This document shows, piece by piece, positions 2,370 through 36,120 of a stretch of DNA of 64,000 bases. Made by a program: the position numbers and the translations under genes. A model generated the notes under the pieces. That model ran no database searches. It worked only from the letters and a program-made list of their open reading frames with translations, and was not told the DNA's origin. The stretch's first letter is position 1. Every line of letters starts with the position of its first letter. Source of the DNA: Candidatus Hydrogenedentota bacterium (GTDB taxonomy: Bacteria; Hydrogenedentota; Hydrogenedentia; Hydrogenedentales; JAEUWI01); NCBI GenBank assembly GCA_016182605.1, contig JACPGE010000074.1, positions 65,694 to 129,693 of the forward strand, read 5' to 3'.

Positions 2370-2372
2370 CAA

Positions 2373-4070
2373 TTACAGCGGCGGGCCGGCATCCGGGCCG
2401 AGCATCGCCTTGCGCACCAGGACCAGCGGCGGGCCGCCGTAAGACAGCAAGGTGTCGTGAAACTCCTTCCACGCCTTCCTTCCGCCACGGCTCGCCGTCC
2501 AGTCTTCGCGCAACTTCAGGATCATGAGCTTGCCCACGGTGTAGCTGTAGTACTGCGGGTCGAAGGTGCCGCGCGCCGCCTGTTGCCGCGCGTTCCCGGC
2601 ATCCTGCCACGCTTTCTCGCGAAACATGGTTTCGGATTCCTCCACCGTCATGCCTTCCGTGTGCAACCCGATAGAGGACAGATAGCGCACGTCACGCAAG
2701 AGCGCATCGAGGATTTGGGCGATGCGCAATGCGGGATTCTTCTCTGCCAGTCCCGCCTCCACCATCATCTCTTCGGTGTAGTGCGCCCAGCCTTCGGAAA
2801 AGGCATAGCCCACAAAGAGACGGTTGAACATGGACTCCGCACGCTGCGCGTGGAGGAAATGCAGGAAGTGGCCGGGCCACACTTCATGCACTGTGGTGTT
2901 GAGCAGGCCGGCCTCGCCGGGGATATAGTCAAGCTGCTCCTGCGGGCTCCACTTCGGATCGGGCGGCGCGATGTAGTAGACGGAGGGCAGGTTCTTTTCA
3001 TAGGGCCCCGGAATCTCGATGTACGCAGAGTTCCAGCGTTTGTAGGGCGGCGCCTCGCCCACGAGTGCCTCCTGCGTTCCCGGAATGGACACAATCTCAT
3101 TGTCCAGCAGAAATTTCTTCAGCCCGGGCAATTGCGCCGTGGCCGTGGCAACCGGCCCGCCGTCCGCTTTGGCGGCATTCACCTCGGCCACGCATGCGGC
3201 AATCGATTTGCCCGGATCGTAGGCCTTGCAGGCCGCTTCCAGGTCCTTCAGGTTGCGGTTGAGGTCCGCATCGGCAATCTCCTTGAAGCGGGCCAGCGGC
3301 AAATCGATGCGTTCCGTAACCCAAAGCATCTTCTGGTAGCGTTCCGCGCCCATGGCAAAATCTTCGTTTGCCTTCGGCTCTTCCCCGGCCAGCCACGTAT
3401 CCGCCTCTTTCAGTGCGGCCACCGCCGTGGCATTCGCCTCCTTCAACTGGGCCTGCAAGGCATCATCCTTCACCGGCGCAAAGATGCCCGGCACATCGGC
3501 CTCGATGAACTCCACCAGCCCGCCGGCCATCATGCGCGCCAGATTGAGAAAGGGCCGCGGAATGGGCGTGCGCACATTCGCTTTCATGTGGGGCACGGCC
3601 GCGGCCACGGCGTGCATATGTTTGATATAGGCCGCCAAGCGCTGCTCGAGGGGGGCGTATTCGCGGGTGAGGTATACGTCTGGTCCGAAGGCGCCCGTGT
3701 AATACGCGGGATTCTTGAACGGCGCTTCCACCTCCTCGTAATAGAAGATCTCCCGCTCGCAACGCGCAAGCAACGATTCGTGCTCTATCTGCCGCGGTGT
3801 GTCCAATTGCGCGGGATCGAACTTGAGCGCCGCGGCATGGGTGGACCTGTAAAAGGCGAGCGGCTTTTCCAGGCCCGCCCGGGAAAAGTTTGGCAACTGG
3901 CCGTCGAATTCGTGGCGCCCTTCATACACGGCGGAATCTGGATTGAGCCGGATGTGCTCTTCGATGAACTGCGCCGTGAACGCATCCCACGCCTTTGCCG
4001 CGTCCTGAGCTTGCGCCGCCATCCCAAACAGCACACACGCCAGGAAGAGCACACCTTTGAAGCGCCACAT
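2373..4070 (-). CDS. DUF885 family exported putative metallopeptidase
   Basis: 565 residues from the ATG at 4070, which is preceded by GGAAAGGA and begins a clear signal peptide (ending near AQA, residue 21). A longer frame to 4481 would run through the divergent promoter region and the next gene, so it was not used. The motif H395-E-V-W-P-G-H401 followed by S425-E-G-W-A-H matches the HE-x-x-P-G-H / E signature of DUF885 proteins, which are thought to be zinc-dependent carboxypeptidase-like enzymes. The signal peptide places it outside the cytoplasm. Divergently transcribed from the DUF1080 gene. Confidence 0.8.
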   Translation of the reverse strand: MWRFKGVLFLACVLFGMAAQAQDAAKAWDAFTAQFIEEHIRLNPDSAVYEGRHEFDGQLPNFSRAGLEKPLAFYRSTHAAALKFDPAQLDTPRQIEHESLLARCEREIFYYEEVEAPFKNPAYYTGAFGPDVYLTREYAPLEQRLAAYIKHMHAVAAAVPHMKANVRTPIPRPFLNLARMMAGGLVEFIEADVPGIFAPVKDDALQAQLKEANATAVAALKEADTWLAGEEPKANEDFAMGAERYQKMLWVTERIDLPLARFKEIADADLNRNLKDLEAACKAYDPGKSIAACVAEVNAAKADGGPVATATAQLPGLKKFLLDNEIVSIPGTQEALVGEAPPYKRWNSAYIEIPGPYEKNLPSVYYIAPPDPKWSPQEQLDYIPGEAGLLNTTVHEVWPGHFLHFLHAQRAESMFNRLFVGYAFSEGWAHYTEEMMVEAGLAEKNPALRIAQILDALLRDVRYLSSIGLHTEGMTVEESETMFREKAWQDAGNARQQAARGTFDPQYYSYTVGKLMILKLREDWTASRGGRKAWKEFHDTLLSYGGPPLVLVRKAMLGPDAGPPL

Positions 4071-4125
4071 AGGCCCGTATCCTTTCCGGTTTCGTCCAAC
4101 CCGCACAGGGAACGTACTGGACGCC

Positions 4126-4154
4126 AAGATACTAGATTCCCGCGGCGGACACAA
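4126..4154 (-). promoter_or_regulatory. Predicted promoter of the DUF885 gene
   Basis: On the minus strand TTGTGT and TATCTT are spaced by 17 bases; the predicted transcript starts about 49 bases before the ATG at 4070. The -35 is weak. The TATCTT -10 recurs upstream of 55159, and TATCCT upstream of 41811. Confidence 0.35.
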
Positions 4155-4169
4155 CCGGCACACGCCCGG

Positions 4170-4198
4170 TTGAAACGGCCCCGTTCTTGGAGTACATT
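4170..4198 (+). promoter_or_regulatory. Predicted promoter of the DUF1080-DinB-sulfatase cluster
   Basis: TTGAAA and TACATT are separated by 17 bases, with a predicted start ~62 bases before the ATG at 4267. Its -35 box lies only 15 bases from the -35 box of the opposing DUF885 promoter. Confidence 0.45.
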
Positions 4199-4266
4199 GC
4201 AGGGCGAACGCAAGCCAACCGCCGGGGGACAAGTCGTCCCGGGCGCCATTACAAGGTGCAGATGAT

Positions 4267-4959
4267 ATGACCACGAGAACCATTGTACGCGCGCTGCTGG
4301 GCCTCAGCCTGATGTCCGGCGCGGCCTTCGCCGCCGGACTTCCCCCGCTGACCCAGGATGACGTGAGTGGCTGGGAAGATCTCTTCACACCGGACCTCTC
4401 GAATGCGAACAAGCCCAAAAAGGTGTGGACCGTGGAGGATGGGGTGCTGACCGCGAGCGAGGACCAGGCGCTCTGGACCAAGAAGGACTACAACAACTTC
4501 ATCCTCGATCTGGAATTCAAGACGGCGGACGGCACCAATAGCGGCGTGATCGTCTATTGCAGCAAGACCTCCGACTGGATTCCGAACTCGGTCGAAGTGC
4601 AGATAGCGGACGACTTCAACGAGAAATGGGCGAATTCGGACAAGACCTGGCAATGCGGCGCGATCTTTGGCCACTTGGCGCCAACCAAGAGCGCCGTGAA
4701 GAAGCCGGGCGAGTGGAACCGTTTCACCATTCGCTGTGTCGAGCAGCAGATCGACGTCATGCTGAATGGCGAACTCGTGACCTCGATGGACATGAGCAAA
4801 TGGACCTCCGCGAAGACGAACCCCGACGGTTCTGCCATCCCCGAATGGCTGAGCACGCCCTTTGCGAAGCTGCCGGCCCACGGGAAGATCGGGCTGCAGG
4901 GCAAGCATGCCGGCGCGCCGATCTGGTTCCGGAATATCAAGATCAAAGAATTGGAATAG
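4267..4959 (+). CDS. DUF1080 (3-keto-disaccharide hydrolase-like) exported protein
   Basis: 230 residues with a signal peptide ending near AFAAG (~residue 24). The core has the concanavalin-like lectin/glucanase pattern of DUF1080: GWEDLF, the segment DLEFKTADGTNSGV, EVQIADD, GEWNRFTIRC, and a final KIGLQGKHAGAPIWFRNIKI. Members in related families act on 3-keto-glycosides or bind sugars; the substrate here is unknown. The DinB gene starts 28 bases downstream and the sulfatase follows, so the three are probably co-transcribed. Confidence 0.85.
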   Translation: MTTRTIVRALLGLSLMSGAAFAAGLPPLTQDDVSGWEDLFTPDLSNANKPKKVWTVEDGVLTASEDQALWTKKDYNNFILDLEFKTADGTNSGVIVYCSKTSDWIPNSVEVQIADDFNEKWANSDKTWQCGAIFGHLAPTKSAVKKPGEWNRFTIRCVEQQIDVMLNGELVTSMDMSKWTSAKTNPDGSAIPEWLSTPFAKLPAHGKIGLQGKHAGAPIWFRNIKIKELE

Positions 4960-17079: not shown

Positions 17080-19119
17080 TCAATCAAGTGGCGGAAGCGG
17101 CCCATGAACCGTGAGTTCCGATATGGAAGTGAAAAACGTCAACACTTTGTACTTTGGCGTGGTCGCCCAATGCGGTATCCCCGCCGCATCGCCAATGATG
17201 CGAATGCCCCGGGTGCTTACAGGCTCAAAGGGCAGCAGGTACTCCACGAAATGCGCTTTGTTGTAGGGCTCTTCGCCCGGGAGCAATTGCGGATCGACCA
17301 CAAGCTTCTTCACCGGCTGCCATGCACCGCCCTCGTCCTGATACTCGACATTCAGGCTCGTGAACCAGCCCGCCATTTCTTCCATGGCGCCGGTATGAAA
17401 ACCCAACAGCCCTATCCGCTGTGGCGTTTCCCACGTGTACCCATAATAATCCTGCCGCGGCCCCTCGCTGCTGTCGATGCTGTAAAACGTCGACCCGTCT
17501 CCTGTCGTCTTGCCATCCCGGATGACCTCCACGCTCGGGGCATACAGGGAGGCGGGCACCGTCAGCCACAGCTTGTCGCGCCGGGCCGTGTTGGTTTCGC
17601 GCACGTTGGCCAAAATTTCCTTCGCCGAAGGCGCCAGGTTCGGGCCGCGCACCATCAACTGCACCGTTTGCGTCAGCGGCACACCGGCACTGTCCTGCGC
17701 CTCGACGACGATCGGGTAGACTCCCGCCTGTTCCGCCGTTCCGGAAAGCACGCCATTTTCGAAGTGCAAACCGGAGGGCAGCTCGCCGAGCAAGACTTGC
17801 ACCGCGTAGGGCGCTGTGCCGCCGAATAGCGGTATCGCCCATTCGAGCGCTTTGCCGGTCTCAATGAGCGGGCGCGGACCCGCCGGAAACTCAAAGGGCG
17901 GAACAAAAGCGGCATCTGCATTAATGAGAAACCCGTCTTCGCCGTTCACTTGGGCGCGTTTGCCACCGGTGGCGAGAATCAGCCGTTCCCCCTGCAACGC
18001 CATGCGGGCGGCCATATTCTTCAACGATGCATTCGGAATGTCGAAGCGGGTGTTGTTCAAATAGAAATCGTTGAAGGGCTCCGTCCAATGGCGATCGGGA
18101 AGGGGCTCCAGCAACGCGGCCGGTATGCCCTTCATGCCGAAGCGCACCGCCATGATGCCCGCTATGGTGGCCGCTTGGTTGTCCGCGTCGAATCCCATGG
18201 CACAGTTCAAATCCAGGGTGCGCTGGAAATCGCCCTCGCCATAGAGCATCGCGAGCACGCCGCACGCGGCATTCAGGTTCGCGTTCCAGATCGTCTTCGC
18301 TTCCAGGGGCTCGTCAATGTAGTACTCCTGGGCCATGACCTTGCGCGCGGCCTGCCAATCCGACGGATACTGCGCATGCAATTCGCGCATCCGGGCGACG
18401 GTGTTAATGAAGCGCCCGTCCTTGGGCAGTTGGGCCGTGCCGATCTCTATCAACGTGTTCATGTCGGTCTCGAAAAAGGCCGCCGCGAACATCGCACCGT
18501 AGAATATGGTCGGTTCGATCCCCCAACTGTCGTCCATAATGCGCGCCGCCCAGCCGGACTTGGCTGCGGCGTACTCGATCATGCCGGGCGCGGTGACGCC
18601 CCAAATCTCGTTAATCAACTGCGGATCGATCTGGAACCAGTGTGGATTGTTCTCGCGGTAGCCCGTTACAGGCGGCGTATATCCGAAATTGAGCGCCGCC
18701 AGGCCCGCCCGGTTCGCCAGCCACACGCGGTCGCGCACATGGTGCTTCCACATCTCCCCCAATTGACGGAGCGTGGGCTCCGGACCAAACTTCTCCATGG
18801 TGAGCAGGTACACATACTCGATGTCCGTATCGTCGTCCGCGTAGACACCATTGGCCTCGCGCATGCGCTCCAGATGCACCCCCTCCTGGTAGCCATAGGG
18901 AAACTTGTCAGGCCCGGGCGCATCGATGTAGTCATTTTCATGCGGCAGGCCGTACATGTTGCCCACGCACTGGCCAATCCAGGAAGCGTAAACTTTCTCC
19001 CGGTAATCGCTCGCGGCGATCTCTTTCTCCGCAGCCATGGCGAATGCAGCCGGAAGCAGGGCCAATACAACCCCAAGGCCTGCTCGCATCAAACCCTTTT
19101 CTGTGACGGACAACTTCAT
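17080..19119 (-). CDS. Exported ADP-ribosylglycohydrolase-family protein with Ig-like and discoidin-like domains
   Basis: 679 residues with a signal peptide to ~residue 30. Residues ~36-370 resemble ADP-ribosylglycohydrolases, all-alpha enzymes with two metal ions. The acidic sites are D95-D-D-T-D99 and D311-A-D313-N followed by QAATIAGIMAVRFG, in place of the usual SDDT and GGDTDT. Next comes a short putative-Ig domain (LPSGLHFENGVLSGTAEQAGVYPI), then a beta-sandwich region (~510-675) with TFYSIDSSEGP and WETPQRIGLLGFH that looks like a sugar-binding or F5/8-type domain. The family removes ADP-ribose or related ribosyl groups in the cytoplasm; a signal peptide suggests a different, extracellular ribosylated substrate. 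It lies four bases after the esterase. Confidence 0.8.
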   Translation of the reverse strand: MKLSVTEKGLMRAGLGVVLALLPAAFAMAAEKEIAASDYREKVYASWIGQCVGNMYGLPHENDYIDAPGPDKFPYGYQEGVHLERMREANGVYADDDTDIEYVYLLTMEKFGPEPTLRQLGEMWKHHVRDRVWLANRAGLAALNFGYTPPVTGYRENNPHWFQIDPQLINEIWGVTAPGMIEYAAAKSGWAARIMDDSWGIEPTIFYGAMFAAAFFETDMNTLIEIGTAQLPKDGRFINTVARMRELHAQYPSDWQAARKVMAQEYYIDEPLEAKTIWNANLNAACGVLAMLYGEGDFQRTLDLNCAMGFDADNQAATIAGIMAVRFGMKGIPAALLEPLPDRHWTEPFNDFYLNNTRFDIPNASLKNMAARMALQGERLILATGGKRAQVNGEDGFLINADAAFVPPFEFPAGPRPLIETGKALEWAIPLFGGTAPYAVQVLLGELPSGLHFENGVLSGTAEQAGVYPIVVEAQDSAGVPLTQTVQLMVRGPNLAPSAKEILANVRETNTARRDKLWLTVPASLYAPSVEVIRDGKTTGDGSTFYSIDSSEGPRQDYYGYTWETPQRIGLLGFHTGAMEEMAGWFTSLNVEYQDEGGAWQPVKKLVVDPQLLPGEEPYNKAHFVEYLLPFEPVSTRGIRIIGDAAGIPHWATTPKYKVLTFFTSISELTVHGPLPPLD

Positions 19120-19123
19120 GAAT

Positions 19124-19903
19124 CTATTCCTGCTTTCCAGGCGCTTCGCTCTTCTTGCGCTGTTTCACAAGCCAGGTCCAAAGCTCTTCCATCTTCATGG
19201 CGGGCGCGCAGGCGCCATGGCCCACGCCCTCGAATATGGTCATCTGCACGTCGGCATCGACACTCTTCAATTCCTGATACATGTTGCGCGATTCGTCCGT
19301 GGGCACGCCGGTGTCCAGTTCGCCCGCAAAAATCCAGATGCCTGCATGCCGGATTCGCTCGATGGCGACCATCGCGCGCGCGCTAATCGCCACAACGGCG
19401 GAAAAGGTGTCCGGATAGCTGCATGCCACTTCCCACGTGCCGAAGCCGCCGCGGCTGTAGCCCATGATCCACACGCGATCCCGATCCACGCGGTGGCGGG
19501 AAATAACGTCCTGCAACAGCAGGTGCACGCTGTCTGGATCCCAGTGCACGTCCGCGGGCAGTTGCGGCGCCAGAAGGATAAACGGAAAGTTCCGGCCCTT
19601 GAGTTTCATCTCGGGCGGACCATACTCAAAAATCTCTTCCATGTCATCGTGCGCGCCGGCGCCATGAAGCCACAACAAGAGCGGCCAGTTCTCTTGAGAA
19701 GTCTCATACCCGTCCGGCAGCATCACCCAGTAATTCATCTTCACGGGCTTCTTGGCTTCGGCTGTGAACACCGTGGGCGGGGGAAAAGCGGGCGCTTCCT
19801 CCGCGACGGCGCCGCCATGGAGGAACAGAAGTGCCGCCAATCCCAATACGCCTGTGACAAGGCATCGAACTTGGCAACTTATTGTGCCGCGGAAATTCTT
19901 CAC
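19124..19903 (-). CDS. Exported alpha/beta-hydrolase, phospholipase/carboxylesterase type
   Basis: 259 residues from a GTG with GAGGGA seven bases upstream. Residues ~10-35 are a signal peptide. The oxyanion region WLHGAGA (~79-85), nucleophile elbow GYS150RGGFG, acid in FAGELDTGVP and His in GVGHGACAP give a complete serine hydrolase triad. The layout matches the small extracellular esterases often annotated as feruloyl/acetyl esterases or phospholipase-carboxylesterases. It lies 12 bases after one glycohydrolase-family gene and four before another, so it likely removes an acyl group from the same substrate. Confidence 0.82.
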   Translation of the reverse strand: MKNFRGTISCQVRCLVTGVLGLAALLFLHGGAVAEEAPAFPPPTVFTAEAKKPVKMNYWVMLPDGYETSQENWPLLLWLHGAGAHDDMEEIFEYGPPEMKLKGRNFPFILLAPQLPADVHWDPDSVHLLLQDVISRHRVDRDRVWIMGYSRGGFGTWEVACSYPDTFSAVVAISARAMVAIERIRHAGIWIFAGELDTGVPTDESRNMYQELKSVDADVQMTIFEGVGHGACAPAMKMEELWTWLVKQRKKSEAPGKQE

Positions 19904-19915
19904 CGTATCTATCCC

Positions 19916-21523
19916 TCACTCTTCCGGACGAAAGGTCTTCGCGTATTCTACACGCACGTGACTGCCCCTGGATCGCGGATCCGCGTCGGGCACGGTCAAT
20001 AAGCGCACCGTATGCTTCGTGTTCTCCAGACCGTACGCATGCCAGATGTCCCGGTCGTAGGTGTCCTTGCCGATGTAGCAGTTCACCCGGCTCACCTTGT
20101 TGCCATCCAGGAAGATGTCCACCATCCCGCCCTGCTCCGGCTCGATCATACCCACGATGGCCACGCCGCTGCCCGTGAATGCAAACTCCGCCTCGTTGCC
20201 CGCTGCCGTGCTTACTTTGGCCGCAGGGTCGTAGTAATTCGCGTAGGGCCGCGTCTCCCAGGCGCCCCGCCAGGTCCACGCCGGATCGTCATGCAAAAAC
20301 TGCTTCTCCGGCAGCCCCATGCTCCATTGTTCCAGCGCGGGCGGCGCGGGAAGCTGCCGCGGCACGATCAGGGTGTTGCCCTCCACGCGTCCTCCGGCGG
20401 TCTCGGCCGCGGCAATGGCGCGCTTCAGGGTAGACTGGCTAATCTCGTTGAAGGTGTAATTCGTGAAGTTGAATTTCGTGTCGGCTATCGCGGGTATGCC
20501 GCCCACCCACGCGGGGTCCAGCGCCTTGTAGCCATAAAGCACGCCAAGCACCCCGGCTGCGCTGGAGGGATTGCAGTCGGAATCCTGGCCGCAGCGCGTC
20601 GATATATCGATGGTCCGCGTCAAATCGCCCGCGCCGTAGAGCATGCCGATCGCGATATAGGCGCCATTGAGACGCGCATCGATGTTGAACGGGGCCAGCG
20701 CGCCTTCGGGGCACGCGTCGTCTTTGTCCCATTTCTCGTTGATCAGGCGCCAGCACTCGGTCCAGCTATCGGGGTGCGCTTCGTACAACGCTACTGTATC
20801 TTCCAGGATCTGCCGGTAGCCGCTGCCCTCGGGCATGCAGGCGATGCCCGCCTCCACGATCTTTTGGATGTCGGTTTCGAAATAGGCCGCGGCGTACATG
20901 CCCGCAACGAACATCCCGCCGTATACGCCGTCCCCATAATTCACCACCCGCCCTATCCGATCACACAGTTCGATCGCCTGTTGCGGCATGCCGGGAGCCA
21001 TCATGCCGATGAAATCGGCCTCGATCTGAAAGTCGATGTCGTTGGAATGCATGTTGTACAGCGGATGACCGGAGAGCGGCGCATCGATATGGTTGTTGAG
21101 ATGCCGCCGCGCCGCCGCGTTCGCGTGCCAAAGCTTGTACTTCGAGTCGCGAAACGCCGCCGCATGGTCCGCCATCGTGGCGTCCAGTCCCACCCTGTCC
21201 AAGACTTCCGCAAAGGTCATCTCCACATAGAGGTCGTCCTGGTCCAGCGCGCCGTTCACCATCTCGGGCGACCATTTCAGATCGGCATCCACGATCCGGC
21301 CGCGCCAGCGGAACTCCGTGGGATCGCCGTAACACACGCCCGCCATCTGGCCCGCCCAGCCTCCCCGGATTTTGTCTTCAAACACGGCCAGGTCAATGCG
21401 CAACTCCTCCCCCGCAACCGCCTGCGCGCCCTCTTCTGTCTGCGTGGTGACACACCCCGCCGCACACACCAGCGCCAGGGCAGCGCACGCGCCCGGGATC
21501 GAACGCTGAAAGCATCTGGACAC
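19916..21523 (-). CDS. ADP-ribosylglycohydrolase-family lipoprotein
   Basis: 535 residues from a GTG at 21523, ten bases after the upstream stop. The signal ends in a lipobox A-A-G-C24, so it should be lipid-anchored outside the cytoplasm. Residues ~40-350 are glycohydrolase-like (FEDKIRGGWAGQMAGVCYGD), with acidic sites D94-Q-D-D97 and GQDSDCNPSSAAG. The C-terminal ~130 residues (from WTWRGAWETRPYANYY) form a likely beta-sandwich. An ATG in another frame at 21525 was rejected because its product lacks these motifs. Close relative of the gene upstream and a more distant relative of the one at 17080. Confidence 0.8.
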   Translation of the reverse strand: MSRCFQRSIPGACAALALVCAAGCVTTQTEEGAQAVAGEELRIDLAVFEDKIRGGWAGQMAGVCYGDPTEFRWRGRIVDADLKWSPEMVNGALDQDDLYVEMTFAEVLDRVGLDATMADHAAAFRDSKYKLWHANAAARRHLNNHIDAPLSGHPLYNMHSNDIDFQIEADFIGMMAPGMPQQAIELCDRIGRVVNYGDGVYGGMFVAGMYAAAYFETDIQKIVEAGIACMPEGSGYRQILEDTVALYEAHPDSWTECWRLINEKWDKDDACPEGALAPFNIDARLNGAYIAIGMLYGAGDLTRTIDISTRCGQDSDCNPSSAAGVLGVLYGYKALDPAWVGGIPAIADTKFNFTNYTFNEISQSTLKRAIAAAETAGGRVEGNTLIVPRQLPAPPALEQWSMGLPEKQFLHDDPAWTWRGAWETRPYANYYDPAAKVSTAAGNEAEFAFTGSGVAIVGMIEPEQGGMVDIFLDGNKVSRVNCYIGKDTYDRDIWHAYGLENTKHTVRLLTVPDADPRSRGSHVRVEYAKTFRPEE

Positions 21524-21533
21524 ATGAAAATGC

Positions 21534-23237
21534 CTATTCACTGACGATCTCCAGGTCGTCCCAGAATGCCGCTTCCCAGGTGATTGTGCCACTGGTGTTG
21601 TAAGCGTTCGTGAGTTCAACCAGTACTTCTTTGCCGGCATACGCGCTCAGATCGAGTTCCACCTTGAGCCAGTTGTCCGTCGCCGTCTCTTTGCCCACGT
21701 TCGTGTCGAGCAAGACGCCGCCATCCACCTTCACGCCGAGCTGCCAATCGCCCGGGTGGTCATGACCCGCCATGAAGCGCAGGGTGGTCTTCTTGCCCTC
21801 CGGAACCAGCACCTTCTGAAAAATTACACAGGGCGTTTTCTCATCCAGCGGATGCGTGCCCAGCACGGAGTCCCGCCCCAGAAACGTATCGTGGTAGCCC
21901 GGATTGCGGTAGCTCCCGCAATGATCTATTTCCCACGCCGGCGCGAACTTCTCGAGCGCGTCCGTCAGATCGATCTTCGGCCCTTCCGGCGGCACGATCG
22001 TGCGCATCTCGCCTTCCGCGTACCGGCTGTTCGCGATGGGGCCCGGATCCCAGCACACCGTAAGCTCGGGCGGCTCCGGCTGCTGCACCGGGATAACGAA
22101 GACCTCGCGGCCCTGCTCGTCGATCTCGATGCGCCCGCCCTCGCGGACAATCGTCTGGCGCGCCAGCATCTCGCTTACCCGAATGACGTCGTCGAAGGTG
22201 TACGGGCTGAAACTGAACTTCGTTTCCTTTTCCAGTCCGGAAGTGTAGCGTTCGGGAAGGTTCTTGTAGCCCACGGTCTGAAACAACACGCCGGCCGCCG
22301 TGGAGGAGGTGCAATCGGAGTCCTGGCCGCAACGCATCGCGGTAGTTATCGTGTTGTCCAGATCGCCTTTCCCGTAGAGCAGGCCAATGACGACGAAGCA
22401 GCCGTTAAGCTTGGCGTTGATATTGCCCTGGCCTTTCGGAAAACAGGCACAGCGGCGGTAGTCATCATTCTTGGCGTACTTGTCCGTCAGCTTCTTCCAC
22501 GCCGCCTGCCAGTCGTCCGGAAACTCGTCTTTCGCCGCCAGCGTGTCCGTGATCGCTTCGTGGTATTGGCTGCCCTCGGGCACGCACCGCAGCCCGGCTT
22601 CCACAATTTCCCGCAGGTCGTCCGTAAAGAACGCTTCCGTGATCATGCCGCCCACAAAGAGGCCGCCGTAGAGGCCGTCGCCATAGTTCATGAGCCGCCC
22701 GAAAATCTCGCCTAGGCGGATAATGCTGTTGGGCAATCCCGGCGAGATAAGGCCGGAATAGTCGGCCTGTATCTGATAATCAATATCGTCGGAATGCTTG
22801 TTGAATTGCGGGTGCCCGGAATCCGGCGGGGCAATGCCGTTGCGCAGATTTTCCCGCGCGTTCAAATTGGCATGCCACAGCTTGTATCCGGAATTGGCAA
22901 AATCGATGCCGGCCTGGCGGATGGACACGTCCAGGCCATAGACCTCCAGCGTGCGCAAGAAGGTCGTGTCCAGATAGAGATCGTCCTGGAAAAACTGGTT
23001 GACGATCCGCGGCTCCCACTTCGGCACCACCTCCATCGGCATGATCTCTTCCTGCCAGCGCGGAGACATCTGCCCCCATCCCACTGCGGCCATCTGCCCG
23101 ATCCAGGCAGCGCGCATTTTGTCGCGGTAGTCCTCCACCAGGAGCCGCCGCATGGGCGCCTCCTCCGCCATCGCCGCGCCCGCTTGAACCAACCAAATAC
23201 AGCCGACCGAAAATGCGGCGAGGTACTTCGTCGCCAT
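21534..23237 (-). CDS. Exported ADP-ribosylglycohydrolase-family protein, first gene of the operon
   Basis: 567 residues from the ATG at 23237 (AAAGG ~9 bases upstream), with a signal peptide ending near AAMAEE. The glycohydrolase-like core starts at YRDKMRAAWIGQMAAV; acidic sites are Q84-D-D86-L-Y and GQDSDCTSSTAAG. These replace the canonical SDDT/GGDTDT but keep the metal-coordinating Asp positions. Residues ~440-567 form a C-terminal beta-rich domain, ending WEAAFWDDLEIV, that could bind carbohydrate. The genes that follow are spaced 10, 12, 4 and 36 bases apart. Substrate unknown; the operon ends in ribokinase, pointing to a ribose-containing compound. Confidence 0.8.
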   Translation of the reverse strand: MATKYLAAFSVGCIWLVQAGAAMAEEAPMRRLLVEDYRDKMRAAWIGQMAAVGWGQMSPRWQEEIMPMEVVPKWEPRIVNQFFQDDLYLDTTFLRTLEVYGLDVSIRQAGIDFANSGYKLWHANLNARENLRNGIAPPDSGHPQFNKHSDDIDYQIQADYSGLISPGLPNSIIRLGEIFGRLMNYGDGLYGGLFVGGMITEAFFTDDLREIVEAGLRCVPEGSQYHEAITDTLAAKDEFPDDWQAAWKKLTDKYAKNDDYRRCACFPKGQGNINAKLNGCFVVIGLLYGKGDLDNTITTAMRCGQDSDCTSSTAAGVLFQTVGYKNLPERYTSGLEKETKFSFSPYTFDDVIRVSEMLARQTIVREGGRIEIDEQGREVFVIPVQQPEPPELTVCWDPGPIANSRYAEGEMRTIVPPEGPKIDLTDALEKFAPAWEIDHCGSYRNPGYHDTFLGRDSVLGTHPLDEKTPCVIFQKVLVPEGKKTTLRFMAGHDHPGDWQLGVKVDGGVLLDTNVGKETATDNWLKVELDLSAYAGKEVLVELTNAYNTSGTITWEAAFWDDLEIVSE

Positions 23238-23298
23238 GGGAATAGACCTTTCAAGTTGTGTTCCCGGCGGGCGCCGGGGTTGGCTTGCCCCCGGGGCG

Positions 23299-23329
23299 GG
23301 GCCGCCAGCTCGTGGGGAGCCGGCGGCCC
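23299..23329 (-). terminator. Strong GC-rich hairpin after the triplicated-module gene
   Basis: A 13-base-pair stem with one G-U pair and a five-base loop lies 21 bases past the stop at 23350 and 62 bases before the ATG at 23237. There is no U-run, so it could instead be a processing or stabilising hairpin. It marks a sensible boundary between the surface-protein gene and the glycohydrolase operon. Confidence 0.5.
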
Positions 23330-23349
23330 GTGCCGGGTGACAGAACGCG

Positions 23350-25470
23350 TTACTTCTGTTTACGGGTCTTGCGCGCCAGCACAAGGGCGATGGCGCCCGC
23401 GCCCGCCGCAAGGGCCGCGAAGCCCGCAACCGGTACTTCCGTGGCCACTTCCAACAAGGTATACAGGGTCACGATCGCTTTCGAACCATCGTCATACGTG
23501 ACCGAATACGTGCCGCTGTCCGATTCGATCGCGGGATCGATGGTCAGCGTCCGGGTATTTACCCCGGAGATCCGGCCCGCTGCCGAGCCGGGAAGCATGC
23601 CTTCGGCAGACGATTCCGTGAAGGTGATGTGATCGATGTACACCTGCGAGATGCCCGCATTGGAGACGAGCCGGAAATCCAGCTTGTCGATGTCGGTCGG
23701 ATCGAAGGGATCCCAACTGTCATCCGCAAAGGCTTCCACTTCCGCAAGCGAGAAGGAGACGTAGCCCCATTCGCCTGCCGCAGGCAGATCGCCCGTGAAT
23801 ACGCCGCCGCGCGCGCCGTTCCATTCCGTGTTGGCCAGCGTCACGCGCGCCAGCGTAAGCGGGCCCGTGTACTTGATGTAGAAGTTGAAGAAGCCCGTCG
23901 ACTGCAGATCGAGCGAACCCAGATCTTCAATCAAGTAACCCCCGCGCGTTGCGCCACTGTGATCGGGATCGATCTGGACGTGCACGGCATGCGCAGAGGC
24001 CGCATCCGGCGTGTCCGTCGTGTAGCCTTCCAGCGTGCCGTCATCGTAGGCTTCGCTGGTGCCACAGGCCGTTTCACCATCATAGTCGCAAGCGATGGTC
24101 ACGTCGACATCGATCGGGCCGCCGTCTTTTTCCCACAGGTAACCCGTGCCGCCTTCGGGCGCGGAAAGCGTGACGGCCTGTCCCGCTTCGATATAGCCCT
24201 TGGGAGACTGATCGATGCTCGGCCCAGCTTCGCCCTCTCCCTCGCCTTCGCCACTTTCCGCACCAATCTCTCCGTTCGCCGGAGAATTGCTCAACGTTAC
24301 GTGGTCGATGAATACCTGGGAAACGCCCGAGTTCGACACGAGCCGGAATTCCACGAACTCCAGATTTGCCGGATCGAATGTGCCGTAGGTATCGTCATCC
24401 CACAAAAGTGCTTCGGCAAGCGAATAGGACAGGTAACCCCATTCACCCTCTGCCGGCAGATCGTCCGTGATAACGCCACCCAGTGCCGCATCGTACTCTG
24501 GATTCGTGAGATTGACCCGCACCAGTTCCAGTGGTCCCGTGTACTTGATGTAGAAGTTCACATAGCCCGTGGACGTCAAGTCCAGTCCGCCAAGCTCTTG
24601 AATTTCCACGCCGCCACGAAGCGCCGCGTCGGTATTCGGATCAACGGTGAATTGCGCCGAATAGGCCGAGCCCGCAGCCGGGGTGTCGGTCGAGTAGGCC
24701 GTGAATACCGCATCCTGGTAAGGCGCAGTCGTGTGGCACTCAGCCTGATCTTCCCAATCGCAAATGAGGATCTGGTCGACCTCGCCTTCGCCTTCGCCTT
24801 CGCCTTCACCCTCGCCTTCACCCTCGCCACCGCCACCCGGATCCACCGGACCGCCAATCTCGCCGTTGACAGCGGTGTCGCTCACCGTGATGTGATCGAG
24901 AAACACCTGCGACGTGCCGCCGTTGGAGACCAGGCGGATATCCATGATCTCAAGATCGGTAACATCGAAGGTCTCCCAACTGTCGTCCATCCACGCCAGC
25001 ACTTCCGACATGGGTATGGAGACATAGCCCCACACGCCTTCCGCCGGAAGATCGGCCGTGAGGATGCCGCCCACAGCCGCGCCGTAGCCGGCGTTTGCAA
25101 GCGTCACCCGGAACATCGTCAGCGGTCCCGTGTATTTCACGTAGAAATTGAAGAATTGGTAGTCCTGAATATTCAGACTGCCAATATCCGTTATCTCCAC
25201 GCCGCCGCGTTCCGCCACGCTGGTCGTGGGATCCACCGTGAATTGTCCGGAGTTGTCCGATCCCGCAGCCGGCGTATCGGCGGGAAATCCCGCCGCGGCC
25301 CCATCGTCATACGGGGCGGTGGTGTGACAGGCCACGCCACCCTCCCAATCGCAAATGATGACTTGTCCTGCCCACGCCGCCGATGGCGAAAGCAGCAGCG
25401 CCAGGGCACATAGCATGCCTAATATCAGCGTTGCCCTCTGCCCTTGTTGTGCTCCAGTACGGTGCCTCAT
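23350..25470 (-). CDS. Surface protein with three 170-residue modules, Glu-Gly linkers and C-terminal anchor
   Basis: 706 residues from the ATG at 25470 (GGGAAGGAAC upstream), with a signal peptide to ~residue 35. Module 1 is residues 37-206, module 2 234-403 and module 3 458-627; all start with a CDWE/CDYD Cys motif and share FYxKYTGPL, GVWGYVS-type and RLVSN-DH segments. Linkers of alternating Glu-Gly lie at 215-230 and 407-414. Residues 417-457 and 632-677 look like the two halves of one Ig-like domain (AGQAVTLSAP ... YLWEKDG; RTLTIDPAIESDSGTYSVTY), with module 3 between them. The end, VPVAG, a hydrophobic stretch and RKTRKQK, is a sorting/anchor signal. I do not recognise the module; a sugar-binding role is a guess from the beta-rich pattern. 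Confidence 0.75.
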   Translation of the reverse strand: MRHRTGAQQGQRATLILGMLCALALLLSPSAAWAGQVIICDWEGGVACHTTAPYDDGAAAGFPADTPAAGSDNSGQFTVDPTTSVAERGGVEITDIGSLNIQDYQFFNFYVKYTGPLTMFRVTLANAGYGAAVGGILTADLPAEGVWGYVSIPMSEVLAWMDDSWETFDVTDLEIMDIRLVSNGGTSQVFLDHITVSDTAVNGEIGGPVDPGGGGEGEGEGEGEGEGEGEVDQILICDWEDQAECHTTAPYQDAVFTAYSTDTPAAGSAYSAQFTVDPNTDAALRGGVEIQELGGLDLTSTGYVNFYIKYTGPLELVRVNLTNPEYDAALGGVITDDLPAEGEWGYLSYSLAEALLWDDDTYGTFDPANLEFVEFRLVSNSGVSQVFIDHVTLSNSPANGEIGAESGEGEGEGEAGPSIDQSPKGYIEAGQAVTLSAPEGGTGYLWEKDGGPIDVDVTIACDYDGETACGTSEAYDDGTLEGYTTDTPDAASAHAVHVQIDPDHSGATRGGYLIEDLGSLDLQSTGFFNFYIKYTGPLTLARVTLANTEWNGARGGVFTGDLPAAGEWGYVSFSLAEVEAFADDSWDPFDPTDIDKLDFRLVSNAGISQVYIDHITFTESSAEGMLPGSAAGRISGVNTRTLTIDPAIESDSGTYSVTYDDGSKAIVTLYTLLEVATEVPVAGFAALAAGAGAIALVLARKTRKQK
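23590..24099 (-). repeat. Module copy 3 (coding repeat)
   Basis: Residues 458-627. Same length (170) as copies 1 and 2, but interrupting an Ig-like domain rather than following a Glu-Gly linker. Confidence 0.7.
24262..24771 (-). repeat. Module copy 2 (coding repeat)
   Basis: Residues 234-403, following the first Glu-Gly linker. Shares with copy 1 the segments CDWE, CHTTAPY and TDTPAAGS. Confidence 0.75.
24781..24828 (-). repeat. Short-period repeat coding alternating Glu-Gly
   Basis: A run of six-base units coding eight Glu-Gly pairs (residues 215-230) between modules 1 and 2. A shorter run lies near 24230-24255. The repeat length could vary between strains by slippage without changing frame. 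Confidence 0.85.
24853..25362 (-). repeat. Module copy 1 (coding repeat)
   Basis: Residues 37-206, directly after the signal peptide. Confidence 0.75.
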
Positions 25471-32113: not shown

Positions 32114-32144
32114 CTTGTACCGGCCACCTGATATCAACCATTCA

Positions 32145-34019
32145 ATGCAGATGGAGCCCCCTTTGAACCTCGACTATTACGGACCATTTGAGCCCGCCAC
32201 GCTCCGGGACCTGCTCTGTATGCGAAAGGCGTCGGAGTTGGCCAAACTGGCCAAAATGCTGACCAACGCCCCCATTCCGGCAAAGGTAGATGATCGCATC
32301 CAGCTTTTGCTCGACCTCGTCGCCAAGTTCGGTCTGCGCGCCCTGTGGGACCGCTTCGATCCCGCGGCGCAGGCCATATTGACCGAGATTATTTACGGCG
32401 AATCGCGCTACTTCGATGAGGGCCGCTTCGCCGCCCGGTACGCCGATGTACTTCCCGAATGGGCAGAGCGATTTACAATCGATCCCGGAAAGCAAAGCAC
32501 GAGCCTCCTGGATCTCTTGTGCTGCCATGACACGGTGCCCGACGACATCCGCGAGGAATTACTCCAGTTTGTGCCGCCACCCCCCAAACCCAAACTCACC
32601 ATCCTCGAGGAAGTCCCCCACTTCATCCAATTCGAAGAGGTAGCCTCCAAGAATTTCCCTGATGGCGCCGAAGTGATTCCCGTTATCTCCGAAGCCGCCG
32701 CGCTGCACGACGTCCTGTCGGTACTGCACCTCATCGGCAACGGCAAAATCGCCGTTAACAGTCCGCCCAAGAAGAAATCCCGGGCCGCGAAGGAAGAGTT
32801 GCCCCAGACCAACAAGACGGGCGCGTCAGCCCTGCTCAAGGTCCTCCATGCCGGTGACTCCACCGATGCCCCCTTCAATCGCGTCGCCGACGCGATCCGT
32901 CCCTTCGCCTGGATCCGGCTCCTGCAGGCGGGCGGGCTGGTCACCGCCACAAAGACCCGATTTCAATTGACGCGCGCCGGACAACAGGCGCTGGCCAAGA
33001 CGCCCCAGGAAATCATTCTCGCCCTGTGGGAGGCCTGGCTTTCCACGCGCGACGCCGATGAGAGCCTTCGCATCGATCCCAGCTTGAACCAATCCCATGT
33101 GAAGCTTAGCCCGCCGCCACGCCGGCGCGAGGCCATACTGCGCGGCCTGAGCGAGTGCCCCCCAGGTGCGTGGATCACCATGAGCAGCTTTCTGAATTAC
33201 TTGCGCGCCTCCGGATACGGGTTCTCCATCCGAGTCTCCTACTTCTTCAACGAGGAGGACGACTACGACTACGACGAAAGCGAGTACGACGAATGGCCCG
33301 GCACTGGCCTGGGCGATCACCTGAATGAACGCTATGTCGCGGCGTTCTTGTGGGAGTATGCCGCGACACTGGGGCTTCTGGACATTCTCGCCCTCCCCAC
33401 CGCTTACGTGAAGGAAATGAACAGGCGCGAATGGAGCGTTGCCGGTGCAGAAAACATCCAACGCTTCGATGGACTCACGGCCTTCCGCATCACTCCGCTC
33501 GGCGCCTACTGCCTCGGTCTGAGCCCCGCCTACACCCCGCCGGCCCACGAGTGCTACGCCCTCTTCCACGTCCTCCCCAACGCGGACATTGTATTGCGCG
33601 ACCCGGAAGCCTGCACACCGGTTGACACGGCCACGCTCGGCCGCTTCGCCGTGCGCCACGGCGATCACTCCTGGCAGCTCAGCATCAAATCCGTGCTCGA
33701 CGCACTCGAAACCGGCTTCTCCAAAACGCAAATACTCGACTTCCTCACCGCGCGCAGCGACGCACCCCTGCCCGACACCGTGCTCCACCTCATCGAAGAC
33801 ACCGCACGCCGCGCCGCTTCCGTGGTCTGCACCGGCCTGGTAAGCCTCTACGAAGCGGTGGACGAGACCACGGCCCTTCTCATCGCCCACGACAAGGAAG
33901 GCAGGAAATACTGTTTCCACGCGGGCGCCAACCGCCTCGCCGTCCCCCACGGCCAGGTCCGGAAATTCCGGACCGCCCTGCGCAAGCTCGGCATACTGGT
34001 TAGCATCGCCCACGAGTGA
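32145..34019 (+). CDS. Helicase-associated (XPB/Ssl2-like, Helicase_C_3-like) protein
   Basis: 624 residues from the ATG at 32145. A second ATG at 32151 and a TTG at 32163 preceded by GGAG are alternatives. No signal peptide, Walker motifs or helicase core. The N-terminus (YYGPFEPATLRDLLCMRK...) and a winged-helix-like middle (RLLQAGGLVTATKTRFQLTRAG) precede a C-terminal region, ~460-570, with FHVLPNADIVLRDPEA, SWQLSIKSVLDALETGFS, LDFLTARSDAPLPDTVLHLI. That pattern matches the Helicase_C_3/XPB-Ssl2 N-terminal-like domain. A very acidic stretch (NEEDDYDYDESEYDEW) lies near residue 375. In other bacteria such proteins lie near or are fused to XPB-type helicases; none is seen here. It converges on the Mrr-NACHT gene. 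Confidence 0.65.
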   Translation: MQMEPPLNLDYYGPFEPATLRDLLCMRKASELAKLAKMLTNAPIPAKVDDRIQLLLDLVAKFGLRALWDRFDPAAQAILTEIIYGESRYFDEGRFAARYADVLPEWAERFTIDPGKQSTSLLDLLCCHDTVPDDIREELLQFVPPPPKPKLTILEEVPHFIQFEEVASKNFPDGAEVIPVISEAAALHDVLSVLHLIGNGKIAVNSPPKKKSRAAKEELPQTNKTGASALLKVLHAGDSTDAPFNRVADAIRPFAWIRLLQAGGLVTATKTRFQLTRAGQQALAKTPQEIILALWEAWLSTRDADESLRIDPSLNQSHVKLSPPPRRREAILRGLSECPPGAWITMSSFLNYLRASGYGFSIRVSYFFNEEDDYDYDESEYDEWPGTGLGDHLNERYVAAFLWEYAATLGLLDILALPTAYVKEMNRREWSVAGAENIQRFDGLTAFRITPLGAYCLGLSPAYTPPAHECYALFHVLPNADIVLRDPEACTPVDTATLGRFAVRHGDHSWQLSIKSVLDALETGFSKTQILDFLTARSDAPLPDTVLHLIEDTARRAASVVCTGLVSLYEAVDETTALLIAHDKEGRKYCFHAGANRLAVPHGQVRKFRTALRKLGILVSIAHE

Positions 34020-34032
34020 TGATCGGGCCAGG

Positions 34033-34182
34033 CTATTCGTCCTCTTCCACGGTAACGGCCAGGGTACGGCCCACCGCGGACCCCGGCAGCGCCACAGCCC
34101 AATACCAGCTCGACAGATCCGGCCAGGACCGCGCACCGGCGATCAGTTCGTGTAAAATGGGTTCAATCCACTTCAGCGTCAC
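34033..34182 (-). CDS. Small open frame, possible 3' remnant of a displaced gene
   Basis: 49 codons from a GTG at 34182 to a TAG at 34033. The first seven codons overlap the 3' end of the Mrr-NACHT gene in another frame. The product (KWIEPILHELIAGARSW ... GRTLAVTVEEDE) looks like a protein C-terminus, and most codons end in G or C, like the host genes and unlike the neighbouring nuclease gene. No ribosome site precedes the GTG. I read it as the tail of an older gene cut by arrival of the nuclease gene; it may also be chance. Confidence 0.3.
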   Translation of the reverse strand: MTLKWIEPILHELIAGARSWPDLSSWYWAVALPGSAVGRTLAVTVEEDE

Positions 34183-35977
34183 TCACTTGAGGCGGCTCAG
34201 CCATCTCACGATAGAATCTCGTCACTTCATCCGGGAAATCTGTGCATGACAATTTCTCTTCGAGCAAGTATTCTGCAATTAGGTATTCATGCACGGGCCG
34301 TAGAGCGAATCCAATTCGAAACGACCTGTCCGATGAAGAGCGATAGCCAAGCGGCGCCATGAGCGTGTGAAGCAATAGTGGCATGAGGCTTATTCGTCCC
34401 ACAGAAAAGACTCGTGTTGCAATCTTTTCAATCTCCTGCTCGTCTATACTCTCATCAAGACCAATGCGGTGCGCCACCCTAGAACACATCGCCCACGCCA
34501 CCTCCCTCATCACCCGATTCAGCTTAACTATCATTGCATTCGCATCAAGAGCAGGGTCCACTTTGGGCCGGCCGGTAATACTGAGGTCTCGTCTCAATTT
34601 GCGTTCAATCCACGAACTTATCAGACCTGTTCGACCGATCTTTCGTATACCATGCTCAACAATATCCTCGACAATGAAACTCAAGAAAAGCGGGTGCCTT
34701 ACAAGATCGCCGTAAGGCGCAAGATTTCCACTCAATATCCGAAGCCGTAATTCCTGCACAATTTGAGAAGCCGCCTCCCCCAGGACATATTCAACTCCCT
34801 GCAGGTACTCGCACACTTGCGGAATTTTCCAATTGCACAAAGTCACAAGTCTGGCTGGCCTTTCAGGAGCATTCTTTGCGGAGAACTCGGAGAACGCTAT
34901 TTCAAAATTGCCGAACATTGACATCAAATACTCGGAGCGCGCTGTGAGCACAATGGGGCACCTGAAGTCGGAAAGCGCGTTGCTGAGACGTTGCATTCCA
35001 ATCAAGTCCGCGAAGACGCGATTCTCATCCAATCCATCGATCACGATAAGGTGGCTCAAATTCTCATTGGCAAGTGCCACGCCCAAAACGGGTCCGGCTA
35101 AATCCTCAAATATCCTGCGCTCCGTTTCGTCAAAATCTGAAAAAGCGCCCAATGACTGCGTCACATCTACCAACAGAGAATTCGTGCCGCTGAATGCATT
35201 GGGAGTGAGGTTGGGCGCCCATATGTATAGTGGCGTGCCGGCAAAGCCCTTGACCGCCAGATTCAATACCATGGTGGTCTTTCCGGAACCGAAAATACCG
35301 GTTACTATGGTCCATCGAATTCGCTCCCACCCAGTACGTATCGCGCAAATGTTGAATCTGTCTGTGGGAGGCTCCTCTTCTCTTGTGCATGGCTTGTCAC
35401 GCGCGAACCTCAGAATCGTCTCCTGCGCTGGCACGTCCTCCACAATACACTCCGAAAACTGGAAGAGGCTCTCGTGCCTCCTCTGCAATTCCGCTGCATT
35501 CTCTTGAAGCCTTTTCTTGAGCCTATCTTCTATTGCCTCTCCCATTTTCAAACGAAGGTCATCAAGACTCCAAAGCAAAGCCGTTTGCGCCTGGCCATCT
35601 GCAACAATCTCCTCCAATAGAGGCTCTAATTTCTCCCGCATAGCCTTGCTTCTTGAATCGCGATTGTAAATCAGAACGTAGCTATTGCACCGGACATTCG
35701 ATGCCCTGAACTTCTCAATGCTGTTCACCATCTGCCTGATCTGCTCCGGACCTATCGATTCAACTTCAAATCCTTTGCACTGAACAACACATTCGAGCCG
35801 CCCGCTTGCTATCGCCTGAAGATCTATACCCATTTGGTCTCTGGCGCCTCGAGCCGGTACCCGCACAAGCGTGGGCCACAAGAGACGAAGATAGTTTATT
35901 ACGCTTCGCTCAAACTCGCTCCCCACAGAGGCCCATAGCTTGCCCTTGTGCTTCTTCCACTTGGCAGAAGCCTTCAT
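34163..35977 (-). CDS. Mrr-type nuclease fused to NACHT NTPase, putative antiphage protein
   Basis: 604 residues. The ATG at 35977 has AAGGA seven bases upstream; a GTG at 35983 is also open. Residues ~15-130 match an Mrr/PD-(D/E)xK nuclease: E21 (GSEFE), D52 (MGIDLQA) and Q66-C-K68. Residues ~220-360 are a NACHT-type P-loop NTPase: Walker A GIFGSGK233TT, Walker B LIVID314GLDE, then TARSEY. HPLFLSF (428-434) and VHEYLIAEYL (562-571) are the helical/winged-helix motifs that close a NACHT module. Only ~30 residues follow, so there is no TPR or LRR sensor as in large Avs proteins. Base composition is clearly lower in G+C than its neighbours (for example 26 and 31 G/C per 60 at 34861 and 34741, against 44 at 33121). 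By analogy it would cleave DNA on phage detection. Confidence 0.75.
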   Translation of the reverse strand: MKASAKWKKHKGKLWASVGSEFERSVINYLRLLWPTLVRVPARGARDQMGIDLQAIASGRLECVVQCKGFEVESIGPEQIRQMVNSIEKFRASNVRCNSYVLIYNRDSRSKAMREKLEPLLEEIVADGQAQTALLWSLDDLRLKMGEAIEDRLKKRLQENAAELQRRHESLFQFSECIVEDVPAQETILRFARDKPCTREEEPPTDRFNICAIRTGWERIRWTIVTGIFGSGKTTMVLNLAVKGFAGTPLYIWAPNLTPNAFSGTNSLLVDVTQSLGAFSDFDETERRIFEDLAGPVLGVALANENLSHLIVIDGLDENRVFADLIGMQRLSNALSDFRCPIVLTARSEYLMSMFGNFEIAFSEFSAKNAPERPARLVTLCNWKIPQVCEYLQGVEYVLGEAASQIVQELRLRILSGNLAPYGDLVRHPLFLSFIVEDIVEHGIRKIGRTGLISSWIERKLRRDLSITGRPKVDPALDANAMIVKLNRVMREVAWAMCSRVAHRIGLDESIDEQEIEKIATRVFSVGRISLMPLLLHTLMAPLGYRSSSDRSFRIGFALRPVHEYLIAEYLLEEKLSCTDFPDEVTRFYREMAEPPQVSDAEVD

Positions 35978-36010
35978 ATCCACTTCCTTTTCGTTGTGCC
36001 GTTTACTAGC

Positions 36011-36040
36011 ACTTTAGTGCCACCTGACTCATATTTTCAA
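36011..36040 (-). promoter_or_regulatory. Predicted promoter of the Mrr-NACHT gene, overlapping an inverted repeat
   Basis: On the minus strand TTGAAA and TAAAGT are 18 bases apart, giving a ~27-base leader before 35977. The -10 lies inside GCACT-AA-AGTGC (36009-36020), a possible operator. Confidence 0.4.
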
Positions 36041-36120
36041 GTCCGATGTTCACAATGTGCCCGCGAAGAACGTTCTCGTGTATCATCCCCCTGGATTCCA
36101 CACGAGGGAGGACGCACCCC

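What the first reader, a model, noticed from the sequence alone, without database searches (positions are those of the whole stretch)
34163..35977. Compact Mrr-nuclease-NACHT protein, a candidate antiphage gene
Seen: an Mrr-type nuclease site (E21, D52, Q66-C-K68), a complete NACHT module (Walker A K233, Walker B D314, HPLFLSF, VHEYLIAEYL) and no repeat sensor at the C-terminus, in 604 residues. Base composition is AT-richer than its neighbours and a GC-rich 49-codon stub follows it. Established knowledge: Mrr nucleases and NACHT/STAND ATPases form bacterial antiphage sensors (Avs, bNACHT). Inference: a minimal one-gene defence system, horizontally acquired, in which phage detection is done by the NACHT module itself.
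Basis: partly seen in the sequence, partly recalled or inferred. Interest (0 to 1): 0.82.

Follow-up and report, generated by a model that had tools for sequence, protein, structure and literature searches.

The report
Truncated-looking Mrr nuclease–NACHT defence gene
A bacterial gene for a DNA-cutting immune switch (nuclease plus NACHT ATPase) really is here and looks foreign, but it stops just where its relatives' sensing part begins, against a broken host gene, so it is more likely a cut-off copy of a known kind of antiphage protein than a new minimal defence system.

Summary
ORF 34163–35977 (−) encodes 604 aa with an Mrr-type PD-(D/E)xK domain and a NACHT/STAND module, in a segment of 51% GC set in about 62% GC. 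No close relative was found. Profile methods place it with Mrr_cat–NACHT(–pentapeptide) proteins of Rhizobium plasmids and one genome of the same phylum (hhalign 97.5%, E=5e-12). This nuclease–NACHT layout is known; bNACHT25/32 are tested examples.

The "minimal system" inference is not supported. First, the stub after the gene is the last ~38 residues of an exosortase-T-like gene that is intact in same-family genomes and has no intact orthologue here. Homology and base composition both place the junction within tens of bases of the NACHT stop codon. Second, only 38 residues follow the end-of-winged-helix motif; the seven intact family relatives have 304–385. Third, the winged-helix histidine that holds NACHT switches off is Leu559 here, whereas 15 of 15 other sampled NACHTs keep His; H506L makes bNACHT25 constitutively active.

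Best reading: a horizontally acquired Mrr–NACHT nuclease whose sensor half was lost at the junction; probably a relic or an unlocked fragment. A native compact protein is not excluded. Expression and activity cannot be tested here.

The parts
34163..35977 (-). Mrr-type nuclease–NACHT (STAND) ORF, 604 aa; alternative GTG start at 35983
   Evidence: profile match to Mrr–NACHT family
35678..35920 (-). Mrr-type PD-(D/E)xK nuclease core, residues about 20–100 (E23, D52, Q66-C-K68)
   Evidence: Mrr_cat 22.3 bits (cut-off 21) on residues 1–150; AlphaFold2 single-sequence model of residues 1–150, pLDDT 73, pTM 0.68, alpha-beta-beta-beta-alpha-beta order
34241..35329 (-). NACHT/STAND module, residues about 217–579: Walker A G230-S-G-K233, Walker B D314-G-L-D317-E318, R347, P429, R463, winged-helix end F557-A-L559-R-P-V-H-E564-Y-L
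   Evidence: invariant columns in alignment A1; hhalign over residues 309–582 at 97.5%, E=5e-12
34301..34303 (-). codon of L559, at the position of the conserved winged-helix histidine
   Evidence: His in 15 of 15 other distinct NACHT proteins; placement of the query residue
34033..34155 (-). 3'-terminal remnant (last ~38 residues) of an exosortase-T-like host gene
   Evidence: mostly 50–66% identical over 34–38 residues to the C-terminus of ~490–540-aa exosortases in eight other genomes; no intact orthologue in the own genome
34142..34211 (.). left junction between the foreign segment and host DNA, best estimate 34160
   Evidence: composition change point agrees with where exosortase homology begins, 34155
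36032..36101 (.). right junction of the foreign segment, best estimate 36038
   Evidence: composition change point

Best explanation
The gene is a horizontally acquired Mrr nuclease-NACHT STAND protein, a known kind of bacterial NLR-related antiphage protein. Its 3' end was lost when the foreign DNA joined, or the locus was later rearranged next to, an exosortase gene that was itself cut down to its last ~38 codons. What remains is the effector nuclease, the NTPase switch and the winged helix, without the sensor half. In intact relatives the inferred mechanism is this: the C-terminal half detects a phage cue, the NACHT module swaps ADP for ATP and oligomerises, and the Mrr domains come together and cut DNA, killing or arresting the infected cell. 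Here the sensor and the OFF-state histidine (L559) are missing, so the product is most likely a non-functional relic, or an unlocked fragment that is silent or misfolded in the cell. Shown by tools: domain identity, family placement, foreign composition, the exosortase remnant, the position of the junction, the missing C-terminal part and His-to-Leu. Inferred: truncation rather than a native end, loss of function, and the ancestral antiphage role.
For: Family: hmmsearch E=3.5e-7 and hhalign 97.5%, E=5e-12, against a Mrr-NACHT profile built without the query; Mrr_cat above its cut-off on the domain. The relatives L141, L142, L144 and L097 carry Mrr_cat and NACHT above Pfam cut-offs, with pentapeptide repeats well above cut-off in L097 and weak in the other three. 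Missing half: 38 residues after the winged-helix end motif, against 304-385 in seven intact Mrr-NACHT relatives, 351 in L148 and 221-557 in other NACHTs of the phylum. Junction: the stub is the C-terminus of an exosortase-T-like protein that is intact in other genomes including two of the same family, with no intact orthologue here; the composition break at 34160 (34142-34211) brackets the NACHT stop codon at 34163-34165. Regulatory residue: L559 replaces a His kept in 15 of 15 others; bNACHT25 H506L, predicted to destabilise the ADP-bound OFF state, is stimulus-independent and hyperactive (PMC12169576); mutation of NLRC4 H443, next to ADP, leads to oligomerisation (PMC8283967). Precedent: a frameshift-split copy of the L144 gene on the matching plasmid of R. 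gallicum R602 (L146).
Against: The 604-codon frame is open and the nuclease and Walker motifs are intact, which is odd for an old relic. No orthologue exists to show that the ancestor was longer, so the native end is unknown. The junction is bracketed only to about 70 bases, which includes the case in which the native stop lies exactly there. Some NACHT clades have short C-termini (SNaCT, NCH1; PMC12169576). The genome is in 130 contigs, so a chimeric assembly join cannot be excluded without reads.
Confidence: 0.6

Rival explanations
1. A native, compact, functional Mrr–NACHT defence protein. The foreign segment carried a complete gene and happened to join host DNA just past its stop codon. 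Detection is done by the NACHT module, its short tail or a host factor, and nuclease activation kills or arrests the infected cell.
For: Open frame with intact nuclease and Walker residues. Own upstream region with an RBS and a promoter-like site at 36040–36011 (little above the shuffle mean). Nuclease–NACHT proteins with a short helical C-terminal domain defend E. coli, and for bNACHT25 sensing runs through host DnaJ (PMC12169576).
Against: All sampled intact relatives have at least 220 residues after the winged helix. No NCH1 or other Pfam family is found in the last 145 residues. The OFF-state His is lost. No defence neighbours. The gene end coincides with a host-gene junction.
Confidence: 0.25
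2. An unlocked nuclease: loss of both the sensor and the OFF-state histidine leaves a constitutively primed Mrr nuclease that is tolerated because of weak expression or substrate choice (for example modified or foreign DNA), so it works as a stand-alone restriction-like or toxin-like factor.
For: L559 is the same kind of substitution as the engineered hyperactive H506L of bNACHT25 (PMC12169576), at the position that alignment assigns to the conserved His. Mrr-type catalytic residues are intact.
Against: A constitutive DNase would be toxic; there is no antitoxin-like or methylase neighbour in the genes examined. That H506 of bNACHT25 is the same column was not checked on its own sequence. A change of this kind is as expected from decay.
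Confidence: 0.08
3. Assembly chimera: the AT-rich gene was joined to this contig by error, so junction and truncation are artefacts.
For: The genome is in 130 contigs and the segment differs sharply in composition on both sides.
Against: The segment lies inside a contig of at least 129,693 bases. The gene on the right has 68–71% identical orthologues in the same family, and the stub's relatives include two genomes of the same family, so both flanks are this lineage's own DNA.
Confidence: 0.05

Closest known systems
Mrr_cat–NACHT–pentapeptide proteins on rhizobial plasmids (R. leguminosarum CP050516, R. acidisoli NZ_CP035001, R. gallicum NZ_CP017104) and L097 of the same phylum
   Same: order of nuclease, linker, NACHT and winged helix; 16 invariant columns in A1 (start Met included), with Walker A and B; significant profile match
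   Different: they are 852–928 aa with 355–385 residues after the winged helix and keep the F-x-H histidine; the query ends after 38 residues and has Leu; only 16–19% identity
bNACHT25 / bNACHT32 (bNACHT clade 6), PMC12169576
   Same: N-terminal PD-(D/E)XK DNase plus central NACHT module, tested as antiphage proteins
Avs4 (antiviral STAND with an Mrr-like nuclease; from general knowledge, not looked up)
   Same: nuclease–STAND ATPase logic, one large protein
   Different: Avs proteins are much larger with long C-terminal repeat sensors; PADLOC gave no Avs match and no solved structure matched by sequence

Membership tests
Mrr-type PD-(D/E)xK nuclease (Pfam Mrr_cat, PF04471) | profile match over the curated cut-off | tested here: met
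   22.3 bits against 21 on residues 1–150; 18.7 bits on the whole protein, below the cut-off
Mrr-type PD-(D/E)xK nuclease (Pfam Mrr_cat, PF04471) | catalytic residues and restriction-endonuclease-like topology | tested here: met
   F-E23, D52, Q66-x-K68 comparable with relatives; modelled alpha-beta-beta-beta-alpha-beta order at pLDDT 73. Foldseek hits (Can2, Cap4, EcoO109I) are weak, none at E<=0.001
NACHT / STAND NTPase | Pfam NACHT over the curated cut-off | tested here: not met
   E=0.25, 11.6 bits against 26.7
NACHT / STAND NTPase | profile homology to NACHT proteins over the NTPase, helical and winged-helix domains | tested here: met
   hhalign 97.5%, E=5e-12 over residues 309–582; hmmsearch E=3.5e-7, E=1.1e-6 among 2538 real ORFs
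NACHT / STAND NTPase | Walker A, Walker B with DGxDE, HD1 proline | tested here: met
   K233, D314/D317/E318, P429 invariant in A1
NACHT / STAND NTPase | winged-helix ADP-sensing histidine | tested here: not met
   L559; His in 15 of 15 others
bNACHT / Avs antiphage STAND | C-terminal sensing domain (tripartite layout, PMC12169576) | tested here: not met
   38 residues after the winged-helix motif; no domain match
bNACHT / Avs antiphage STAND | phage protection dependent on nuclease and NTPase | not testable with these tools
   needs a phage challenge assay
bNACHT / Avs antiphage STAND | location among defence genes (usual, not required) | tested here: not met
   no defence gene identified among about a dozen neighbouring ORFs scanned; the only strong PADLOC hits are to an ordinary sugar ABC ATPase

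The most novel reading that the evidence does not exclude
A naturally sensor-less, histidine-less Mrr-NACHT protein that is still functional: a STAND nuclease held off and triggered by something other than a C-terminal sensor and the ADP-contacting histidine, or one that acts constitutively on foreign DNA.
Probability: 0.15. Interest if true: 0.7.

Novelty: new member of a known kind. Interest (0 to 1): 0.33.

Why it matters
If functional, it would be among the smallest nuclease–NACHT switches and would test whether a NACHT protein can sense infection without a C-terminal domain. If a relic, it is a clear example of how foreign defence genes arrive, break a host gene and decay. It also warns that 'no sensor domain' in a single genome can mean a truncated gene.

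Tried and rejected
Close relatives: none in the 67 other genomes of the phylum, in two 8-mer scans of GTDB r220 contigs, in tblastn against plasmids and phages or in viral contigs. The weak plasmid hits at E 2–8 were looked at: the Burkholderia matches lie over short hypothetical genes annotated on the other strand, and the Nonomuraea match is a separate Mrr protein.

Mrr_cat hits in the phylum with 460–580-aa frames are mostly DNA methyltransferases with an Mrr tail, not NACHT proteins.

Motif scans of viral contigs gave none for HEYLxAEYL and ten unrelated places for GIFGxGKTT.

Full-length AlphaFold2 without an alignment was useless (pLDDT 40). Foldseek on the nuclease model gave plausible but non-significant hits.

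Empty-site test: the right-hand hydrolase has same-family orthologues, but their surroundings are not syntenic. The regions around the intact exosortases share only scattered distant hits with the window. So no clean pre-insertion locus was found.

Full report
WHAT IS THERE. On the minus strand, 34163–35977 is one open frame of 604 codons with an ATG start behind AGGAAG; a GTG two codons upstream is also possible. Two details need correcting. The conserved nuclease glutamate is E23 (the F-E pair shared with relatives), not E21. The string VHEYLIAEYL does not carry the diagnostic histidine of the winged helix: in register with relatives, that position is L559. A frame of this length without a stop has a chance of about 2.5e-13 at equal base use, so it is or was a gene.

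NUCLEASE. Pfam Mrr_cat is just under its cut-off on the whole protein (18.7 against 21 bits) and above it on residues 1–150 (22.3 bits, E=1.5e-4). AlphaFold2 on residues 1–150 without an alignment gave pLDDT 73 and pTM 0.68, with the alpha-beta-beta-beta-alpha-beta order of restriction-endonuclease folds. Foldseek against the PDB lists nucleases of that fold (Can2, Cap4, EcoO109I, EndoMS) among other folds, none at E<=0.001; this is consistent, not proof.

NACHT. Pfam NACHT is far below its cut-off (E=0.25). The evidence comes from relatives. A genome of the same phylum holds an 852-aa protein with Mrr_cat, NACHT and pentapeptide repeats all above cut-off (L097). It led to nuclease–NACHT proteins on plasmids of Rhizobium, Azospirillum, Paraburkholderia and Streptomyces. 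A profile of eight of these, built without the query, matches the query at E=3.5e-7, against 0.84 for the best of 999 shuffles, and by hhalign at 97.5%, E=5e-12, over residues 309–582. Among 2538 real ORFs the hits at least as strong as the query's are NACHT proteins, apart from one Mrr protein (L079). The alignment has 16 invariant columns, among them G230, G232, K233, D314, D317, E318, R347, P429, R463, F557, E564 and A568. The protein therefore has the Mrr–NACHT layout, at 16–19% identity to its best relatives.

FOREIGN. The gene has 51% GC and GC3 0.55; neighbouring genes have 62–64% and 0.77–0.85. A composition change-point analysis puts the ends of the foreign segment at 34160 (34142–34211) and 36038 (36032–36101). 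The protein is absent from the other 67 genomes of the phylum held here and from phage, plasmid and pattern-based scans. The genes around it are metabolic: glycoside hydrolases, ADP-ribosylglycohydrolases and a sugar ABC transporter. No defence gene was identified among those scanned.

THE STUB. The 49-codon frame after the gene is not a partner gene. From 34155 on, it is the last 38 or so residues of an exosortase-T-like protein that is complete (about 490–540 aa) in eight other genomes, two of them in the same family, at 50–66% identity for most. In this genome the only orthologous piece is the stub; the next hit is a different exosortase at 24%. The conserved QCxFS stretch that should lie about 15 residues upstream is not in the stub frame (read). 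The host gene therefore breaks between about 34155 and 34200, a span that contains the NACHT stop codon (34163–34165). Homology and base composition give the same junction independently.

WHERE THE PROTEIN ENDS. After the winged-helix end motif the query has 38 residues. Seven intact Mrr–NACHT relatives have 304–385 there, L148 has 351, and other NACHT proteins of the phylum have 221–557. In the closest relatives part of that stretch is pentapeptide repeats, strong in L097 and weak in L141, L142 and L144. No domain is recognised in the last 145 residues of the query. The simplest account is that the gene lost its sensor half at the junction and now uses a stop codon that lies at or near it. 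A frame running into unrelated DNA is expected to stop within a few tens of codons, which fits. A native stop that happens to lie at the junction is possible and is the main rival.

THE SWITCH RESIDUE. In 15 of 15 other distinct NACHT proteins sampled, the motif reads F-x-H; the query reads F557-A-L559. The same profile aligns that histidine to FFHKSFQEY of NLRC4. In NLRC4 the ADP-proximal H443 contributes to the closed state and its mutation leads to oligomerisation (PMC8283967). In bNACHT25 the H506L change is reported to give stimulus-independent DNA degradation (PMC12169576). Loss of this residue together with the sensor removes both known brakes, which is expected either of a decaying copy or of an unlocked nuclease.

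MECHANISM AND VERDICT. Intact members very probably sense an infection cue with the C-terminal half, exchange nucleotide, oligomerise and activate the nuclease, as for bNACHT25/32, whose D48A nuclease mutants lose protection (PMC12169576). For this copy I commit to a 3′-truncated, probably non-functional acquisition (0.60), ahead of a native compact defence protein (0.25), an unlocked nuclease (0.08) and an assembly artefact (0.05). It is a divergent member of a known kind; 'detection by the NACHT module itself' is not supported by anything found. The membership claim is limited: it is an Mrr–NACHT protein by homology, but it fails the tripartite definition of bNACHT/Avs defence proteins because a C-terminal sensing domain was looked for and not found.

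LIMITS. No orthologue was found, so selection cannot be measured. The genome is a 130-contig assembly and reads were not available. The synteny comparison gave no clean empty site.

Noticed in passing
34033-34155 (-): C-terminal remnant of an exosortase-T-like gene; this genome has no intact orthologue, though same-family genomes do, so its PEP-CTERM-type sorting may depend on another exosortase (G000:C2:152658-153221).
   Followed up: partly
34158-34171 and 34600-34613: A 13-of-14 direct repeat (TGGGTTCAATCCAC / TGCGTTCAATCCAC) links the left junction to a site inside the NACHT gene; in controls only 4 of 300 shuffles and 3 of 300 random places do as well. It may mark microhomology in the rearrangement.
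   Followed up: partly
L146 (R. gallicum R602 plasmid, 2094-4704): A frameshift-split copy of the Mrr–NACHT gene that is intact in R. gallicum IE4872 (L144): this family decays in nature. In L144 a second 'restriction endonuclease' with its own P-loop (762 aa) sits directly upstream.
   Followed up: no
L097:961-3516 (G049:C127): An 852-aa Mrr–NACHT–pentapeptide protein in the same phylum, with its C-terminal half present; a better candidate for a functional defence gene than the one in the window.
   Followed up: partly
L143:505-6047 (Azospirillum argentinense p5): A SIR2-family gene, a NACHT gene and a tyrosine recombinase in a row on a conjugative plasmid: a likely mobile defence unit.
   Followed up: no
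17080-23429 (-): Three ADP-ribosylglycohydrolase-family genes close together on one strand.
   Followed up: no
32115-34019 (+): A 634-aa protein with only a Helicase_C_3 domain and no recognised motor domain; relatives in just three other genomes of the phylum at about 30% identity.
   Followed up: no
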